Shown here: positions 55,565 to 62,695 of the stretch, one piece after another
Position numbering within the stretch: position 1 is the first letter of the stretch
Layout: every line of letters begins with the position of its first letter
Assembly (NCBI RefSeq): GCF_010728155.1
Contig: NZ_AP022605.1
Location: forward strand, 372,001 to 436,000
Length of the DNA: 64,000 bases
From: Mycolicibacterium doricum
Lineage (GTDB): Bacteria > Actinomycetota > Actinomycetes > Mycobacteriales > Mycobacteriaceae
Reading direction: 5' to 3'
Position numbers and translations under genes: made by a program
Notes under the pieces: model-generated
Told to the model about the DNA's origin: nothing
The model's database searches: none
The model's input: the letters and a program-made list of their open reading frames with translations, nothing else

Positions 55565-58333
55565 TCAGGGCTCGTCGTCGGAACTCCATGCTTCTCGCCG
55601 GCGAGCCAGCGCGACGCGCCCCCGAACGCCGAGCTTGCGGTAGACGCGGCCCAGATTGGCCTCGACGGTCTTGATGCTGATGAACAGCGTCGCGGCGATG
55701 TCGCGATTGCTCATCCCCGACGCGGCCAGTTCGGCGACCCGCCGCTCTGACGGTGTGAGGCTCTGATCCCGGCGGGGACGCACATTGACGCGCGCCAGTT
55801 CGTCGCGTGCGCGCTGGGCCCACAGCGCGGTGCCGATGTCCTCGAAAGTCTGCAGCGCTTCGCGCAGTGTCGCCGACGCCGCTTCCTTGCGTCGCTGTCT
55901 GCGCTGCAGCTGCCCGAGAAGCAGTGCGGTGCGGGCCCGTTCGAACGGCATCGGCACCCGATCATGGTGCGCCATCGCCTCGGTTACCGCGGCGATCGCA
56001 CCGTCGACGTCGCCGCGCGCGGCCAGCTCCATACCGCGGCCACGCCCCGCGACGGCCGACATCCACGGGCGGTGCAGGCGTCGTCCTTCGTGCGCGAGTC
56101 TCTCGATGAGCGGGCGTGCATCGTCGTTTCGGCCCACCGCCACCAACGCCTCGATGGCATCCGGGACGAAGAAGGATCCGACGATCTCGTTGCCGGGGGT
56201 GGCGAGGTACTCATCGATCAGCGGCTCCAGCACGGTAAGTGCCTGTGGGTAATTGCCCAGAGACACCTCGAGGAAGATCAGCACACCGCGGGGCCACCAC
56301 GTCGTCCGCCTCATCCCGCTGCGGTGCGCCATCTCCAGCGCCGTCTCGGAATCCGCGCGGGCGGCGCGCACCCGGCCCGCGTAGGCGCTGACGATCCCAC
56401 GCACGCCCAGCGCCACCAGCCGCGAGTTGTCGCCACCGACCTGTTCGGCGCGTTCGACGGCGTCGTCGGCGTAGGTTTCGGCCTCGTCGAGACGTCCGCG
56501 CCACAACTCGACCAGCGTGCCGCTCACTGACAGCGCGAGCAGGTCGCGGTCGGCGCCGCGGTCCAGGCTCCGGCGCCGCAGACCCTCGAGCGTGTCGGAC
56601 GCCTCGTCGAGCTGACCAGTCCACGAGTTGATCAGGGCGGCCACGGCGCGGGCCCGAAAAGGCAGCGGCACATCGGCTTCGGGTTCCTCGTAGTCGAGAG
56701 CGCGCTGCAGGTCCTGCTCGTCGAGCCCCAATCCGAAGATGAAGCGGGTGAACAACCGAACGGTAAGGGAGTGGCCGATCAGCTGATGCTGACCGGTCTG
56801 TTCGGCGATCTCGACCGCGCGGTCGGTATTGCGCAGTGCCGCTTCGTGATCGTTGTCATTCGTCTGCGCCATGCCGAGCGTGAGGAGGCAGTGCACCTGC
56901 AGGGTGGGGTCGGACTCGCTGTCGGCGAGCGCTTCGTCGAGCATCTCGATACCACGTTGGTACTCGTTGTGGTCGATGACGATTCCGGCGAGGTGCATCG
57001 AGGCAATCGCCCGCAACGGACCGTGCGGCATGCGGGGCAGCGTGGCGGTCAGTAGTTCCTCGGCGCGCGCGCTGTCACCCGCGGTGAAGTAGTGGGCGGC
57101 GGCCTGCAGGCGGCGCAGATCGGTGTCCCCGCCGAGACGCATGGCGAAGTCGAGGAGTTCGGCCGCCGCTGCCGGGGCGCCGCGGGCCCGCGCCGCGTTG
57201 GCGGCCGCGTCCAGTGCGGCAAGCGTGTCGTCGTCCTGGCTGGTCGCTGCGAGCGCGAGGTGACGGGCCTTCTGTTCCGGTTGGGAGATCACGCCCGCCA
57301 GTCGCCTGTGCATGTGTCGGCGACGGGCTGGCCCTGCCTCGGAGTAGACACCGCGCGCCAGCAGAGGGTGCGTGAAACGGATCGTCACGCCGTCGATCTC
57401 GATCAGACCCTCGTTCTCGGCGGTTTCGAGGAGCTCGAGCACCTCCTCGCGGTCCTTCTCGGTGGCGCTCGCCACGAGGTCCACGGTCGGAGTGGCGACG
57501 CAGGCGGCGGCGAGCAGGACGTCACGCACCACCTCGTCGACGCCTCGGATGCGTCGGCGCACGACGTCGGCCAGTGACGCAGGCAGGGCAGGCTCGCCCG
57601 CGGCGGTCTGCTCAGTGATGGCGCGGGCCAGTTCGAGCGCGTAGAGCGGGTTTCCGCCTGACGTCTCCGCGATTCGGACGAGGGTGGGGCGCGGGAACGA
57701 GCGGCCGAGCCGCTCTGTGAGCATCGCGTGCAGGCCGCCGAGGGTGAGCGGCGCCACCCGGTGGCGTCGCAGCCGATCCGGATTGCCGAGTCGCAGCCAC
57801 TCAGTGTGGTGGTGCCCCGGCTCCTCGGTGCGTTCGGTGAACAGCAGCCCGAGCGGGCAGGTGAGGCGCCGTGCTACGAAGCCGAGCACATCCCGGCTGC
57901 ACACGTCGAGCCACTGCACGTCGTCGACGGCCAGGATCAGCGGTGTATCGCTGCAGAGGATCTCGAGAGTGTTCAGGACGGCTGCGGCGGCCACCCGGTG
58001 GTCGGTGCCGGGCCCGTCCACGTCGCCGCGCAGCATCAGCCGGTCCAGCGCCAGCCGCTGCACCTCGGGAAGGTCCTTGGTGACCTCGGTGTCGACGTCC
58101 TCGAGAAGCTCGGCGACCACGGCGTAGGCCAGTGACGTCTCGGCCTGACCCGCGCGGGCAGACAAGACCTGGTATCCAAGCCGGTGGGCTTCCTCGAGGG
58201 CGCTCAGCCACAGCCGGGTCTTGCCGATCCCGGCCTCGCCCTGTAGGAGCAGTCCGGATGGGCCATCGGTGACCGCAGCCAGGAACTCGGCGACGGCCGA
58301 CCGACCGGCCGGCGTGTTCCGCGCCGGGTCCAT
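55565..58333 (-). CDS. LAL-type large LuxR-family ATP-binding regulator
   Basis: A 922-residue regulator. N-terminal AAA+/STAND ATPase: Walker A GEAGIGKTRL (near residue 34), Walker B LILAVDDVQWLD (near 135). The middle is a TPR-like superhelix of about 500 residues (for example ALAATSQDDDTLAALDAAAN and MHLAGIVIDHNEY). The C-terminal GerE-type helix-turn-helix is LTPSERRVAELAASGMSNRD...SIKTVEANLGRVYRKLGV. Such proteins switch genes on in response to small molecules. ATG 58333. It diverges from nothing nearby: the MarR gene is upstream on the same strand. Confidence 0.93.
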   Translation of the reverse strand: MDPARNTPAGRSAVAEFLAAVTDGPSGLLLQGEAGIGKTRLWLSALEEAHRLGYQVLSARAGQAETSLAYAVVAELLEDVDTEVTKDLPEVQRLALDRLMLRGDVDGPGTDHRVAAAAVLNTLEILCSDTPLILAVDDVQWLDVCSRDVLGFVARRLTCPLGLLFTERTEEPGHHHTEWLRLGNPDRLRRHRVAPLTLGGLHAMLTERLGRSFPRPTLVRIAETSGGNPLYALELARAITEQTAAGEPALPASLADVVRRRIRGVDEVVRDVLLAAACVATPTVDLVASATEKDREEVLELLETAENEGLIEIDGVTIRFTHPLLARGVYSEAGPARRRHMHRRLAGVISQPEQKARHLALAATSQDDDTLAALDAAANAARARGAPAAAAELLDFAMRLGGDTDLRRLQAAAHYFTAGDSARAEELLTATLPRMPHGPLRAIASMHLAGIVIDHNEYQRGIEMLDEALADSESDPTLQVHCLLTLGMAQTNDNDHEAALRNTDRAVEIAEQTGQHQLIGHSLTVRLFTRFIFGLGLDEQDLQRALDYEEPEADVPLPFRARAVAALINSWTGQLDEASDTLEGLRRRSLDRGADRDLLALSVSGTLVELWRGRLDEAETYADDAVERAEQVGGDNSRLVALGVRGIVSAYAGRVRAARADSETALEMAHRSGMRRTTWWPRGVLIFLEVSLGNYPQALTVLEPLIDEYLATPGNEIVGSFFVPDAIEALVAVGRNDDARPLIERLAHEGRRLHRPWMSAVAGRGRGMELAARGDVDGAIAAVTEAMAHHDRVPMPFERARTALLLGQLQRRQRRKEAASATLREALQTFEDIGTALWAQRARDELARVNVRPRRDQSLTPSERRVAELAASGMSNRDIAATLFISIKTVEANLGRVYRKLGVRGRVALARRREAWSSDDEP

Positions 58334-58493: not shown

Positions 58494-58958
58494 TCAGTTC
58501 GCAGGCCGCAGTTCGTCGGAGAGCCCAGCGTTTATGCGACGGCAGTTCTCCGCCATGGCAGCGATCTGGGGCTGGCTCAGCGGTTCCAGGTAATGCGTGC
58601 GGACAGTGCTGCCGTAGACGGTCATCGCCTTGTCCAGCAGGCAGCGGCCTTCGTCGGTGATGGCGGCCAGGACGTAACGGCCGTCGCGGTCGCTGGACGC
58701 GCGGTGCGCCAGGTTTCGCGCCTCGAGCCGGTCGACGCGGCGGCTCACCCGGCTTGGCGTGGACACCAGGGTCTGCGCCAGCGTGCCCATGCGCACCGAC
58801 CCGGTGGCCGACTTCGCGAGTTCATGCAGCAGCCGGACGTCTTCGAGGGTGAGCCGACAGGCCTCGTTGAGCTCCTGGTTCAGCTTCGCCTGCAGCCGCA
58901 GCGCAGCGTCCAAGTAGTTCTGCCACGACTTCAGCTCGGCGATGTCGAGACCTGGCAT
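58494..58958 (-). CDS. MarR-family transcriptional regulator
   Basis: A 154-residue winged-helix regulator. Helix SVRMGTLAQTLVSTPSRVSR (near residues 54-73) is the recognition region and RASSDRDGRYVLAAITDEG (near 86) the wing. ATG 58958 is used; GTG 58988 with GGGGGAAG upstream is an alternative that adds ten residues. It lies between the LuxR regulator and the divergent ketosynthase gene, which it may control. Confidence 0.87.
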   Translation of the reverse strand: MPGLDIAELKSWQNYLDAALRLQAKLNQELNEACRLTLEDVRLLHELAKSATGSVRMGTLAQTLVSTPSRVSRRVDRLEARNLAHRASSDRDGRYVLAAITDEGRCLLDKAMTVYGSTVRTHYLEPLSQPQIAAMAENCRRINAGLSDELRPAN

Positions 58959-59059
58959 GTCACTCGGGGTTCGTCCCGTCCCTGTCACTTGCAAGCTTCC
59001 CCCGGTGCCGGCGCGACGGTCTCCCCCGTCCGCGCGGTGATCGATACTGGTTTGTCGGT

Positions 59060-59392
59060 CCGCGACCTGCTGTAACACGTCTTCTCCCCTCCGTGGCCCC
59101 TCGGACCGACTGCCCCGCCCCCCTCGGCAGTTCGTTGCCGCCAAGTGTCGGGTGCAGGGATGGGCCGAGGAATCGGGGGTTTCCCTACCCTTCACCCAAT
59201 TTGCCATAACTGCAGCTTCTCGCGACTCGACGGCGGTGTGCACTGGACAACAGGGGGCGCGACACCATTCGGGCGCTACCAGCTGCGGAAGCTGGTCGGC
59301 GGGGGCGCGATGGCGAAGGGCTCGGCGGGCGCTGTGCGCTGGCCCGCGTGCCGACGCGCGAAATGCATGGTGCCACAAGCTAATCTTCGGGC
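59060..59392. other. Regulatory gap between divergent MarR and ketosynthase genes
   Basis: About 330 bases without a supportable gene. It holds copy 3 of the recurrent dyad (59169-59188). Minus-strand frames over it are extensions of the MarR frame and are not credible as protein. Confidence 0.5.
59169..59188. promoter_or_regulatory. Recurrent 20-nt dyad motif, copy 3
   Basis: GGAATCGGGGGTTTCCCTAC, about 205 bp before the ketosynthase ATG and about 210 bp before the MarR start. See copies at 44751 and 55419. Confidence 0.5.
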
Positions 59393-60643
59393 ATGGCCAA
59401 GTTGAGAACCGGGAGCGGATTTGCCGATGTGGTGGTGACCGCGGTGGCCTCCACCACGGCGCTGGCGCCGGACGCCGAGGACACCTGGCAGCAGCTGCTG
59501 GCCGGACACAGTGGTATCCGCCCGCTGGATTCTTGGTTCGTCGACGAACTGGACTCGCCGGTGCGCATCGGCGGTCAGCTGCGGGAGGATTTCGACGCCC
59601 ACCTCAACCGCGTCGAACTACGCCGGTTGTCCTACATGCAGCAGATGTCCACGGTGCTGGGCCGCCGGCTGTGGGAGGCCGCGGGTACGCCGGACATCGA
59701 CGAACGGCGGTTGATGGTGTCGATCGGGCTCGCGCTGGGCTCGACCGAGGAGATCCCGGCGCAGTACGACACCTGGCGGCAGAAGGGTATGCGCGCGGTG
59801 TCGCCGCTGGCCGTGCAGATGTATATGCCCAATGCCCCGGCCGCCGCCGTCGGGCTGGAACGGCAGGCCAAGGGCGGCATCATTTCTCCGGTGATGGCCG
59901 ACGCGTCGGGGGCGGCCGCCATCGCGCAGGCATGGCGCCAGATCGTCCTCGGTGAGGTGGAGATGGCCATCTGCGGCGGCGTGGAGACGCGGATCGAGGC
60001 GGTCCCGGTCGGTGCGTTCACCGCCTTGGGCATGCTGTCGGTCAACAACGACAACCCCGCCGGCGCCTGCCGACCGTTCGACAAGGACCGCGACGGCATG
60101 GTGTTCGGTGAAGGCGGGGCACTGTTGCTCATTGAGACCGAGGAGCACGCCAAGGCCCGCGGCGCCACCATCCTCGCCCGTATCCTGGGCGCGGCCATGA
60201 CGTCGGACGGCTACGACGTCGTCGAACCGGACCCGAGTGGCGTGCCCGCCGGTGACGCGATCAGGCATGCGGTCGATCTGGCCGGTCTGGAGCCCTCCGA
60301 CATCGGATTCGTCAACGCCCACGCCGCCGGCACGGCGTTCGGCGACGTGGCAGAGGAGCGCGCCATCCGGCATGCGCTGGGCGAGCACCGGCCGGCGGTG
60401 TACGCGCCCAAGGCGGCGCTGGGTCACTCACTGGGCGCCACCGGGGCCGTCGAGGCGGTGCTCACCGTCCAGTCGTTGCGTGACGGGGTCGTGCCGCCGA
60501 CGCTCAACGTGCAGCACCTCGACGCCGACATCGACCTGGACGTCGTCACCGGCGAGCCGCGTCGCGGTGACTACCGGTATGCGGTCAGCGACTCGTTTGG
60601 CCTCGGTGGACACAACGTCGCGCTGGTGTTCGGCGCCTACTGA
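59393..60643 (+). CDS. KasA/KasB-like beta-ketoacyl-ACP synthase lacking the catalytic cysteine
   Basis: A 416-residue thiolase-fold enzyme whose closest recalled relatives are the mycolate-elongating KasA and KasB: TGSGFADVVVTAV, HAKARGATILARILGA, SLRDGVVPPTLNVQHLD and DSFGLGGHNVALVFG are all KasA-like. At the nucleophile, where KasA has SACSSG, this protein has MADASG, so Cys171 is replaced by Asp170. Other active-site elements remain: His in VNAHAAGTAFGD, and Lys/His in PKAALGHSLGAT. It may be a decarboxylase, a non-condensing partner subunit, or dead. ATG 59393. The neighbours are mycolate methyltransferases. Confidence 0.88.
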   Translation: MAKLRTGSGFADVVVTAVASTTALAPDAEDTWQQLLAGHSGIRPLDSWFVDELDSPVRIGGQLREDFDAHLNRVELRRLSYMQQMSTVLGRRLWEAAGTPDIDERRLMVSIGLALGSTEEIPAQYDTWRQKGMRAVSPLAVQMYMPNAPAAAVGLERQAKGGIISPVMADASGAAAIAQAWRQIVLGEVEMAICGGVETRIEAVPVGAFTALGMLSVNNDNPAGACRPFDKDRDGMVFGEGGALLLIETEEHAKARGATILARILGAAMTSDGYDVVEPDPSGVPAGDAIRHAVDLAGLEPSDIGFVNAHAAGTAFGDVAEERAIRHALGEHRPAVYAPKAALGHSLGATGAVEAVLTVQSLRDGVVPPTLNVQHLDADIDLDVVTGEPRRGDYRYAVSDSFGLGGHNVALVFGAY

Positions 60644-60770
60644 CTCCGAACCGGCCTCCGAACCGGCGTGATCCCGGACTTCGACCCGACGCCCGGTGTG
60701 TTCACGGAGATGACATGGGAACTGGGCGACGAAGTCGATCCGGGGCGATGTCAGCTCACGCTGACGGCCG

Positions 60771-61670
60771 CTACTTGACCAGCGTGAACTGCTCGACGTA
60801 GCTGACGTTGCGGTTGAAGAAGTCCGCGCAGCCGAGCAGGTACTTCATGTACCGCTCGTAGACCTCTTCGCTGGTCGCCGCGATCGCCTCTTCGCGGTGC
60901 TGCTCGAGGCTGTCGGCCCAGGTGGTCAGCGTCCGGACGTAGCTGGCTGTCAGGTCGTCCCGGTCGGCGACGGAAAACCCGGCGGCGGTCGAAAATTCGA
61001 CGACGTCCTCGTCGCACGGGACCGAGCCGCCGGGGAAGATCTCCTTGGCGATGAATCGCATGAACCGCAGATCGCTCATGGTGATCGGCACGCCGAGATC
61101 GGGCCAGCGCTTGAGCGGGTGGCCCATGATCGTCTGCAGCACCATGCGCCCGTCGTCGGGCATGATGCGGTGGCACAGGTCGAAGAACGCCTTGTAGCGC
61201 TCCTTCGGGAACGCCTCGAACGCCTCGATGCTGACGATGCGGTCGACGGGCTGTTCGAACTCCTCCCAGCCGCGCAGCATGACCTGGCGCGACCGGGAGG
61301 TGTCGATTCCGTCGAGGACCTGCTGACCCAGTGACTGCTGGTTCTTGCTCAGGGTGAGGCCGATGACGTTGACGTCGTGGCGCTCGACCGCGCGCTTCAT
61401 CATCGCGCCCCAGCCGCAGCCGACGTCGAGCAGCGTCATCCCGGGGTGCAGGTCGAGCTTGTCGAGGGCCAGGTCGATCTTGGCCAGCTGCGCCTCTTCG
61501 AGCGTCATGTCGTCGCGCTCGAAGTAGGCGGAGCTGTACGTCCGCGTCCGATCTTGCCAGAGTCCGAAGAAGTCGTTGGAGATGTCGTAGTGGGCCTGAA
61601 CGTCTTCGTAGGCCACCTTCATCGTCTTTGTCGAAGTGCCTGCTGAGCCCACCGACCCGCTGTCCGTCAT
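60771..61670 (-). CDS. Mycolic-acid-type SAM methyltransferase with altered active site
   Basis: A 299-residue CmaA/MmaA/PcaA-family protein. SAM motif LLDVGCGWGAMMKRAVE (near residue 72), N-terminal AYEDVQAHYDISNDFFGLW and C-terminal ERYMKYLLGCADFFN are family signatures. At the bicarbonate/active-site loops the usual GAFEHF is EAFEAF (near 147) and the usual LLHTI is VLQTI (near 177), so two conserved His are gone. It may still bind SAM and lipid. ATG 61670. It is downstream of, and on the same strand as, the other methyltransferase. Confidence 0.87.
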   Translation of the reverse strand: MTDSGSVGSAGTSTKTMKVAYEDVQAHYDISNDFFGLWQDRTRTYSSAYFERDDMTLEEAQLAKIDLALDKLDLHPGMTLLDVGCGWGAMMKRAVERHDVNVIGLTLSKNQQSLGQQVLDGIDTSRSRQVMLRGWEEFEQPVDRIVSIEAFEAFPKERYKAFFDLCHRIMPDDGRMVLQTIMGHPLKRWPDLGVPITMSDLRFMRFIAKEIFPGGSVPCDEDVVEFSTAAGFSVADRDDLTASYVRTLTTWADSLEQHREEAIAATSEEVYERYMKYLLGCADFFNRNVSYVEQFTLVK

Positions 61671-61732
61671 TTGCGTCGTCCTCCGCTTTCCCGAAAATGG
61701 ATCTTGCACTGTTTGCGCAGATTGCCCTGGCG

Positions 61733-62695
61733 TTAAGCGGGCGCCTTCTCGAGGGTGAACTGCGCGACGTCGGTGTAGCCCTGGCGGAACAGGTCGGCGC
61801 AGCCGTCGAGGTACTTGAGGAAGCGCTCGTAGATCACCTCGTCGGTGATCTCGATGGCCTCGTCCTTGTGCGCCTCGAGGTTGCGCGCCCAGGTGTCCAG
61901 GGTCTTGACATAGTGGGGCTGCAGGTGCTGCGCGCGGGTCACGGTGTAGCCGGCCTTGACGGCGTGCTCCTTGACCATCGATGCCAGCGGTAGACGGCCG
62001 CCGGGGTAGATCTCGTCCATGATGAACTTGATGAACCGCACGCGCGACATCGTGAGCGGCAGGTTCTTGGCTTTGATCTCTTCATCCTCGGGAATGATGA
62101 TGGTGTGCAGCATCTGCACACCGTCCTCGGGGAGCCAGTCGAAGGTTTTCTTGAAGTAGTCGTCGTACTTGTTGAAGCCGAAGTGCTCGAACGCGCCGAT
62201 GGACACGATCCGGTCGACCCGGCCGTCGAAGTCCTCCCACGGCTGCAGCCGGACCTCCATCTTGCGGTGGCTCTTCGAGTTGGCGAACCAGTGCTCCTCG
62301 ATGTGGCGCTTCTGATTCTCGGAGAGCGTGAGGCCGACGACGTTGACGTCGTACTTCTCCACCGCCCGCATGATCGTGGCGCCCCAGCCGCAGCCGATGT
62401 CCAGCAGCGTCATGCCCGGCTCGAGGCGGAGTTTGCCCAGTGACAGGTCGATCTTGGCCAGCTGGGCCTGTTCGAGCGTGTAGTCGTCCTTCTCGAAGTA
62501 GGCGCAGCTGTAGACCTGATTGGGGTCCTGCCACAGCTTGAAGAATTCGTTGGAGATGTCGTAGTGAAACTGGACCTCGCCCTTGTCGGAGCCGCGGGTC
62601 TGCGAAGCCGACTTCGACAGCCACTTGGACTCTGCCTTGGGTGACTCTGCCTTGGGTGACTCTGCCTTGGGTGCTGCGCTCGATGAATCTGCCAC
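61733..62695 (-). CDS. Mycolic acid cyclopropane synthase/methyltransferase
   Basis: A 320-residue CmaA/MmaA/PcaA-family methyltransferase modifying meromycolate double bonds. Family residues are intact: FHYDISNEFFKLWQD, LLDIGCGWGATIMRAVEKYD (SAM site, near residue 94), IVSIGAFEHFGFNKY (Glu-His, near 168) and QMLHTIIIPEDEE (His, near 200), YERFLKYLDGCADLFR near the end. GTG 62695 is used. The N-terminus carries three tandem PKAES pentapeptides, an unusual extension before the fold starts at about residue 37. Confidence 0.93.
   Translation of the reverse strand: MADSSSAAPKAESPKAESPKAESKWLSKSASQTRGSDKGEVQFHYDISNEFFKLWQDPNQVYSCAYFEKDDYTLEQAQLAKIDLSLGKLRLEPGMTLLDIGCGWGATIMRAVEKYDVNVVGLTLSENQKRHIEEHWFANSKSHRKMEVRLQPWEDFDGRVDRIVSIGAFEHFGFNKYDDYFKKTFDWLPEDGVQMLHTIIIPEDEEIKAKNLPLTMSRVRFIKFIMDEIYPGGRLPLASMVKEHAVKAGYTVTRAQHLQPHYVKTLDTWARNLEAHKDEAIEITDEVIYERFLKYLDGCADLFRQGYTDVAQFTLEKAPA
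62628..62672. repeat. 15-bp tandem repeat in the methyltransferase N-terminus
   Basis: GACTCTGCCTTGGGT occurs three times in direct succession (plus strand), encoding PKAES repeats on the minus strand. The frame is preserved, so copy number may vary without breaking the gene. Confidence 0.9.

What the first reader, a model, noticed from the sequence alone, without database searches (positions are those of the whole stretch)
59393..60643. KasA/KasB-like ketosynthase with Asp in place of the catalytic Cys, beside two mycolate methyltransferases
The overall sequence is close to mycolate-elongating KasA/KasB, including the His and Lys active-site loops, yet the SACSSG nucleophile motif is MADASG (Asp170). 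Chain-length-factor partners and KSQ decarboxylases carry Gln or other residues here; Asp in a KasA-like protein is unusual. Its divergence from a MarR gene and proximity to two methyltransferases suggest a regulated mycolate-modifying partner subunit rather than random decay.
Basis: partly seen in the sequence, partly recalled or inferred. Interest (0 to 1): 0.72.

Follow-up and report, generated by a model that had tools for sequence, protein, structure and literature searches.

The report
Mycolate ketosynthase with conserved catalytic aspartate
Many environmental mycobacteria carry a third copy of a cell-wall lipid-building enzyme in which the essential catalytic cysteine has become an aspartate, apparently several times independently and usually next to lipid-modifying methyltransferases, so it is probably a repurposed, non-elongating partner and not a broken gene.

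Summary
ORF 59393-60643 is an intact 416-aa KasB-type ketosynthase with Asp170 (GAC) where KasA/KasB have the nucleophilic Cys. It is no local mutation: the 120 best listed homologues all have Asp, as do 82 of 83 same-genus hits (396 genomes searched; one hit not read). Among 94 distinct genes codon 170 switched between GAC and GAT at least 12 times. In 71 of 83 genomes the gene lies within about 10 kb of the same mycolate methyltransferase (MT1), usually paired with a second. New here: a sister clade, six members of which were found beside MT1, mixes Cys, Asp, Gly and Ser at this site; trees indicate four to five separate Cys-to-Asp replacements (AU tests reject a single origin). His310, Lys340 and the likely AcpM-docking arginines are kept; the Phe gate and pocket residues changed. 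Best reading: a non-condensing KasB paralogue that still docks AcpM and serves the methyltransferases; a KSQ-like decarboxylase is the main rival. The MarR link is local: a kinase relic lies between the genes. No function was tested, and the structure prediction gave no usable model.

The parts
59393..60643 (+). KasB-derived ketosynthase paralogue with Asp at the nucleophile site (D-KS), 416 aa
   Evidence: dN/dS 0.10-0.13 against seven nearest relatives
59900..59902 (+). codon 170, GAC = Asp, at the KasA/KasB catalytic Cys position
   Evidence: Asp in 120/120 listed homologues; GAC 76 / GAT 18 in 94 distinct D-clade genes, which were sorted by this residue
60320..60322 (+). His310, first catalytic His (NAHA)
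   Evidence: H in 93/94 D-clade genes, S in 1
60410..60412 (+). Lys340 (PKAALGH)
   Evidence: K in 93/94, R in 1
60425..60427 (+). His345, second catalytic His
   Evidence: H 82, N 11, T 1 of 94; kept in 75/78 loci with MT1 against 5/13 without
60602..60604 (+). Leu404 in place of the Phe gate (GFGG loop)
   Evidence: D clade L100 I32 F14 M13 V2 of 161; KasB 56/56 and KasA 53/53 F
60771..61709 (-). MT1: mycolate methyltransferase; Glu/Ala/Gln at the CmaA1 Gly/His/His positions
61733..62695 (-). MT2: CmaA1/PcaA-like mycolate cyclopropane synthase
59247..59318 (+). relic of a Ser/Thr kinase / solute-binding-domain gene that is intact upstream of D-KS in relatives
   Evidence: 58-68% identity over 22-24 aa, E 1e-4 to 4e-4; domains of the intact gene
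60659..60742 (+). relic of an esterase-like gene that lies directly downstream of D-KS in relatives
   Evidence: 89-96% identity over 28 aa, E 9e-13 to 2e-11
58494..59078 (-). MarR-family regulator, start placed by relatives; association with D-KS is local

Best explanation
D-KS is a KasB paralogue that has lost condensation and is kept as a non-elongating FAS-II subunit serving the neighbouring mycolate methyltransferases. Shown from sequence: Cys-to-Asp replacement fixed under purifying selection in a large clade, several separate origins, retained His/Lys and likely AcpM-docking residues, altered gate and pocket residues, and lasting linkage to MT1. Inferred: the carboxylate stands in for the resting Cys thiolate and keeps the His-Lys network in shape, so the protein can bind AcpM-held meroacyl (or malonyl) groups without being acylated, and, as homodimer or heterodimer with KasB, it holds the chain or complex for MT1/MT2, as KasA and KasB are reported to bind such methyltransferases. 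Split: conserved, functional, non-condensing paralogue about 0.8; methyltransferase-partner role about 0.5.
For: Asp in 120/120 best listed homologues and in 82/83 genus hits, one not read. At least 12 silent and no amino-acid changes at codon 170 among 94 D-clade genes (sorted by residue), and no other residue among the 182 sequences of the main clade on an unsorted tree. Median dN/dS 0.232 against 0.117 (KasB) and 0.111 (KasA). Separate origins: minimum 6 changes D/non-D on trees of 137 and 48 rows; AU p = 0.00017 against one Asp clade and 0.00002 against one sister-Asp clade (52 rows, quick tree). Linkage: 72/83 D-KS genomes have MT1 (count checked), 71 within about 10 kb (positions); all 79 distinct MT1 genes at D-KS loci are convergent with it, 66 under 100 bp away. 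Arginines 73, 77 and 78 are 161/161 and Arg134 is 158/161; they fall in the FabF-AcpP contact regions (PMC7138838, passages; residue matching by recall). In M. tuberculosis all eight mycolate methyltransferases tested scored + with KasB, and seven + and one +/- with KasA, in two-hybrid/co-IP (PMC3245277, abstract and passages).
Against: No biochemistry. 11 of 83 D-KS genomes lack MT1 and one has it far away; MT1 occurs without a nearby ketosynthase in 19 of 40 loci read. Convergent genes are not co-transcribed. A Cys-bearing ketosynthase of another lineage sits in the same place in 5 loci and Cys sister-clade enzymes beside MT1 in 4, so the locus does not require Asp. A pure scaffold would not need both histidines. 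Gly and Ser also occur in the sister clade, so loss of Cys may matter more than gain of Asp.
Confidence: 0.5

Rival explanations
1. KSQ-like malonyl-AcpM decarboxylase: with the nucleophile gone, the two His and the oxyanion Thr residues decarboxylate malonyl-AcpM to acetyl-AcpM, priming or regulating a specialised FAS-II line.
For: His310, Lys340 and Thr314 in 93/94 D-clade genes and His345 in 82/94; His345 kept in 75/78 loci with MT1 against 5/13 without (not corrected for kinship). In the KSQ-based model of this step two His hold the carboxyl group and two Thr the thioester (PMC12267109, passages). The FabF gating pair Asp265/Asn404 is matched by Asp272/Asn408, both 161/161.
Against: The residue is Asp, not Gln, and its charge would oppose the malonyl carboxylate. 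Thr312 is replaced in 16/94 D-clade genes, here by Ala. Mycobacterial FAS-II is primed by acyl-CoA through FabH (recalled), so acetyl-AcpM has no obvious use.
Confidence: 0.22
2. Chain-length-factor-like subunit: obligate heterodimer with KasA or KasB that sets meroacyl length across the shared tunnel.
For: Cys loss with altered pocket residues (T113L, G114A, F236M, gate F404L); condensing enzymes of M. tuberculosis FAS-II interact with each other (PMC3245277, figure legend passage).
Against: In 100 D-KS loci over 9 kb no AcpM-like gene and no second full ketosynthase was found (one 57-aa piece near a stretch end), unlike known KS-CLF pairs; Lys and His retained; no heterodimer shown.
Confidence: 0.13
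3. Relaxed decay: a redundant KasB copy losing catalysis, with Asp as one of several tolerated residues.
For: Higher dN/dS than KasA/KasB; Gly, Ser and changed residue 345 (24 of 120) in the sister set; neighbouring genes of this locus are relics.
Against: Only Asp seen in the main clade with at least 12 silent changes at the codon; no in-frame stops in the 83 hits; Asp needs two base changes from Cys codons, yet Fitch counts 5 C>D against 1 C>S; dN/dS 0.10-0.13 in the window's close lineage while its neighbours decayed.
Confidence: 0.1
4. It still condenses, by an Asp-assisted non-covalent route from acyl-AcpM.
For: Intact His/Lys and likely docking surface.
Against: No precedent turned up in the paper searches (open-licence library); the established ping-pong reaction needs a Cys acyl-enzyme.
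Confidence: 0.05

Closest known systems
KasB / KasA (mycolate FAS-II beta-ketoacyl-AcpM synthases)
   Same: family model, 68% / 58% identity to the own copies, His, Lys, gating Asp-Asn pair, likely AcpM-docking arginines
   Different: Asp for the catalytic Cys; Phe gate mostly Leu/Ile/Met; T113L, G114A, S168M, E175A, F236M, H275D; separate locus, usually beside methyltransferases
KSQ loading-module decarboxylases (e.g. GfsA KSQ)
   Same: nucleophile replaced while both His are usually kept
   Different: Asp not Gln; stand-alone type II protein; one oxyanion Thr variable; activity untested
Chain length factors and AmcG-type partner subunits of type II PKS
   Same: ketosynthase relatives without the nucleophile that act as partners
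   Different: no adjacent catalytic ketosynthase or ACP; catalytic His and Lys kept; heterodimer not shown
MmaA4/UmaA/MmaA1/CmaA1 mycolate methyltransferases
   Same: MT1 and MT2 belong to this family (NF040660)
   Different: MT1 subfamily combines Glu162, Ala166 and mostly Gln (65) or Glu (14) at 192; product unknown

Membership tests
KasA/KasB family (NF005916) | model score above cut-off | tested here: met
   741 bits against 560
KasA/KasB family, as condensing enzyme | nucleophilic Cys | tested here: not met
   Asp170; KasB 56/56 and KasA 53/53 have Cys
KasA/KasB family | His, Lys, His active-site residues | tested here: met
   window has all three; D clade 93/94, 93/94, 82/94
KasA/KasB family | condensing activity on acyl-AcpM | not testable with these tools
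   needs enzyme assay
KSQ decarboxylase | Gln at the nucleophile site | tested here: not met
   Asp
KSQ decarboxylase | both catalytic His | tested here: met
   present here; 82/94 keep the second
KSQ decarboxylase | malonyl-ACP decarboxylation | not testable with these tools
   needs assay
Chain length factor | encoded beside a catalytic ketosynthase and ACP | tested here: not met
   100 D-KS loci over 9 kb: 0 with an AcpM-like hit (the same query hits 59 other loci), 1 with a 57-aa ketosynthase piece near the end of its stretch
Chain length factor | obligate heterodimer with the ketosynthase | not testable with these tools
   no complex prediction was available; the single-chain model is unusable (mean pLDDT 36)
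Pseudogene / decay | broken frame or loss of constraint | tested here: not met
   no stops in 83 hits; dN/dS median 0.232
Mycolic acid methyltransferase family (MT1, MT2) | NF040660 above cut-off | tested here: met
   443 and 447 bits against 390

The most novel reading that the evidence does not exclude
Mycobacteria have repeatedly (at least four well-separated times) converted a methyltransferase-linked KasB copy into an Asp-ketosynthase, a distinct functional class in which a carboxylate replaces the thiolate, giving a non-acylatable AcpM-binding subunit that commits meroacyl chains to a particular methyltransferase pair.
Probability: 0.33. Interest if true: 0.78.

Novelty: new variant of a known kind. 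Interest (0 to 1): 0.6.

Why it matters
How mycobacteria direct a given meromycolate chain to a given methyltransferase is an open question. A third, nucleophile-less KasB kept beside methyltransferases gives a direct genetic and biochemical handle on it. If the independent origins of Asp hold, nature has run the same replacement several times. That would add Asp to the known Gln cases of ketosynthase repurposing, and the database name 'KasA/KasB family beta-ketoacyl-ACP synthase' would be misleading for these proteins.

Tried and rejected
Rejected: local mutation or sequencing error. Rejected: plain pseudogene. Rejected: MarR-regulated pair as a general feature (kinase gene or relic between). 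Not found: plasmid-borne D type; of 1291 plasmid records with a match the best reaches 64.3% identity, and the 5 KasA/KasB-like ones that I read have Cys. Not found: hits outside the genus at E 1e-190 in 201 family-wide genomes of 31 genera. Led nowhere: structure prediction (mean pLDDT 36 with 30 similar sequences), so no fold search was run; CLF comparison (three Streptomyces plasmid regions with no gene annotated as CLF). In the subclade without MT1 the neighbours of one example locus (L173: a cytochrome oxidase subunit, an esterase, a PAP2 protein, a LuxR regulator) gave no clue. Literature: ten searches showed no report of an Asp KasB paralogue; this covers only the open-licence library, and I read passages (for two also the outline and abstract) of seven papers, none whole.

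Counting cautions: locus rows were put in the D set by their residue 170, so 161/161 and the codon counts are partly by construction; the counts not sorted by residue are 120/120, 82 of 83 and the 182-member main clade. 83/396 is a lower bound: nine further D-clade genes below that cut-off turned up. KasB scores overlap the lowest D scores. The six sister loci were found by looking near MT1, so their adjacency to it is not an independent count. The comparison (91 loci) is not corrected for kinship. Genome-wide adjacency was counted for MT1 only; MT2 was seen with it in 37 of 45 loci and in most. The AU tests were on a quick tree and the sister group was chosen after the tree was seen.

Full report
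What is there. The window's ORF at 59393-60643 (+) encodes 416 aa with motif VMADASG. It belongs to the KasA/KasB family model with 741 bits against a cut-off of 560, and its nearest solved relative is 2gp6, then KasA entries. The genome (4.03 Mb, one contig) has separate KasB (68%) and KasA (58%) genes at 2.49 Mb, both with Cys. So this is a third, dispersed KasB-type copy, with Asp170 at the Cys position. His310, Lys340 and His345 are present.

Is it conserved? All 120 listed homologues (of 5,431 above the threshold; 75-93% identity) carry Asp. A profile of 30 members found it in 83 of 396 same-genus genomes. I read the residue in 82 of these, all Asp (one of them, G013, through the matching named record L054), and did not read one (G027). 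Nine more D-clade genes below that cut-off appeared later. Named carriers include M. asiaticum, M. novocastrense, M. litorale, M. monacense, M. wolinskyi, M. elephantis and M. deserti. In 201 genomes of 31 genera in the family, only the window's genus gave hits at E 1e-190. Among 94 distinct genes the codon is GAC in 76 and GAT in 18, with at least 12 switches between them. These genes were sorted by this residue, but on a tree of 352 sequences not sorted by residue the main clade of 182 also has only Asp. Median pairwise dN/dS is 0.232 for the D clade, 0.117 for KasB and 0.111 for KasA; the window gene against its seven nearest relatives gives 0.10-0.13. The gene is constrained, less tightly than the housekeeping pair.

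What changed around the site. Against KasB (56 sequences) and KasA (53), the D clade (161) has near-fixed switches T113L, G114A, S168M, E175A, F236M and H275D, and the Phe gate is Leu 100, Ile 32, Phe 14, Met 13, Val 2. Kept are Asp272 and Asn408, which match FabF Asp265 and Asn404 of the gating network (PMC7138838, passages), and Arg73/77/78 (161/161) and Arg134 (158/161), in the regions that in FabF contact the carrier protein (residue matching recalled). His310, Lys340 and Thr314 are in 93 of 94, His345 in 82 of 94, Thr312 in 78 of 94; the window protein has Ala312. Two divergent D-clade members have lost further residues: L223 has Ser at 310 and L232 Arg at 340.

Neighbours. In 45 D-KS loci the commonest neighbours are two mycolate methyltransferases on the opposite strand, downstream (38 loci have at least MT1, 37 both). 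Using genome-wide searches, 72 of 83 D-KS genomes have the MT1 subfamily (154 of 396 overall; counts checked) and 71 have it within about 10 kb (positions). All 79 distinct MT1 genes at D-KS loci converge on D-KS, 66 with under 100 bp between. MT2 keeps the CmaA1-type Cys, Gly, Glu, His and His (70/70 each). MT1 at D-KS loci has invariant Glu162, Glu165 and Ala166, and Gln (65) or Glu (14) at 192, where CmaA1 has Gly, Glu, His and His: MmaA4 shares the Glu162 and Gln192 letters, MmaA1 Glu162 and Ala166, UmaA Ala166. His345 is kept in 75 of 78 D-KS loci with MT1 but in 5 of 13 without (Fisher p 2e-6, not corrected for kinship). In 100 D-KS loci over 9 kb there is no AcpM-like gene and no second full ketosynthase.

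Relics in the window. Close relatives have a kinase/solute-binding gene just upstream and an esterase-like gene just downstream of D-KS. The window keeps only fragments at 59247-59318 and 60659-60742.

The sister clade. Reading 40 MT1 loci (39 from genomes without a D-KS hit, plus the distant MT1 of G182) gave 9 lower-scoring D-KS, 6 sister-clade ketosynthases, 5 ketosynthases of another lineage (60% identity, Cys) in the same convergent position, 1 fragment at a contig end and 19 without a ketosynthase. The six sister genes run in the same direction as MT1; four have Cys, two Asp. A profile of them found 120 listed relatives (of 5,490): Cys 102, Asp 12, Gly 4, Ser 2, and 24 of the 120 have Tyr, Asn, Asp or Cys at 345. 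With the site itself left out of the tree, D against non-D needs at least 6 changes (137 rows; 48 rows). The AU test rejects all Asp rows as one clade (p 0.00017) and the sister Asp rows as one clade (p 0.00002; 52 rows, quick tree). With a Cys root, Fitch gives 5 C>D and 1 C>S, and D>G, G>D, G>S inside one weak group. Four separate Asp groups are well supported in the careful tree: the main clade (100/100), L234/P0193 inside a 100/100 group with two Cys members, P0146 inside a 100/98 group with two Cys members, and the P0212 group (100/96); a fifth (P0227/P0167) is uncertain and could join the P0212 group. From the genetic code, Cys to Asp needs two base changes while Ser, Gly, Tyr, Phe, Arg and Trp need one, so simple drift would be expected to favour the latter.

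Mechanism. Without a thiol there is no acyl-enzyme, so ordinary condensation is very unlikely (established ping-pong mechanism). The retained arginines, gate network and His/Lys argue that AcpM and its cargo are still bound. In M. tuberculosis all eight mycolate methyltransferases scored + with KasB, and seven + and one (MmaA1) +/- with KasA, in two-hybrid and co-IP tests, and the authors write that the elongation complexes might have a methyltransferase binding site (PMC3245277, abstract and passages). I therefore favour a non-condensing AcpM-binding subunit dedicated to MT1/MT2, with KSQ-like decarboxylation as the main rival. In the KSQ-based model two His hold the carboxyl group and two Thr the thioester (PMC12267109, passages), and the link between His345 and MT1 fits that rival as well.

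Limits. The structure prediction gave no usable model (mean pLDDT 36), so pocket statements rest on sequence and on recalled FabF/KasA numbering. Ten paper searches in an open-licence library showed no report of such a paralogue. That is not proof of absence in print.

Noticed in passing
59247-59318 and 60659-60742: Relics of a kinase/solute-binding gene and an esterase-like gene flank the intact ketosynthase; relatives have both genes whole.
   Followed up: yes
L211, L222, L225, L236, L237: A different, Cys-bearing KasB-like ketosynthase (60% identity) occupies the same convergent position beside MT1-MT2.
   Followed up: partly
L145 (M. intracellulare subsp. chimaera plasmid): Plasmid-borne kasB (Cys) directly behind a hadA gene; Rhodococcus and Tsukamurella plasmids also carry KasA/KasB-family genes with Cys.
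   Followed up: partly
60771-61709 and its orthologues: MT1 subfamily has mostly Gln or Glu where CmaA1 has an active-site His, and the window copy has Ser at 60 where most have Cys.
   Followed up: partly
L173, L174, L176, L180, L185, L193: D-KS members without MT1 neighbours tend to have Asn at the second His (8 of 13).
   Followed up: partly
55565-58333: 922-aa LuxR-type AAA/TPR regulator next to the MarR gene, its cluster present in 11 of 45 loci.
   Followed up: no
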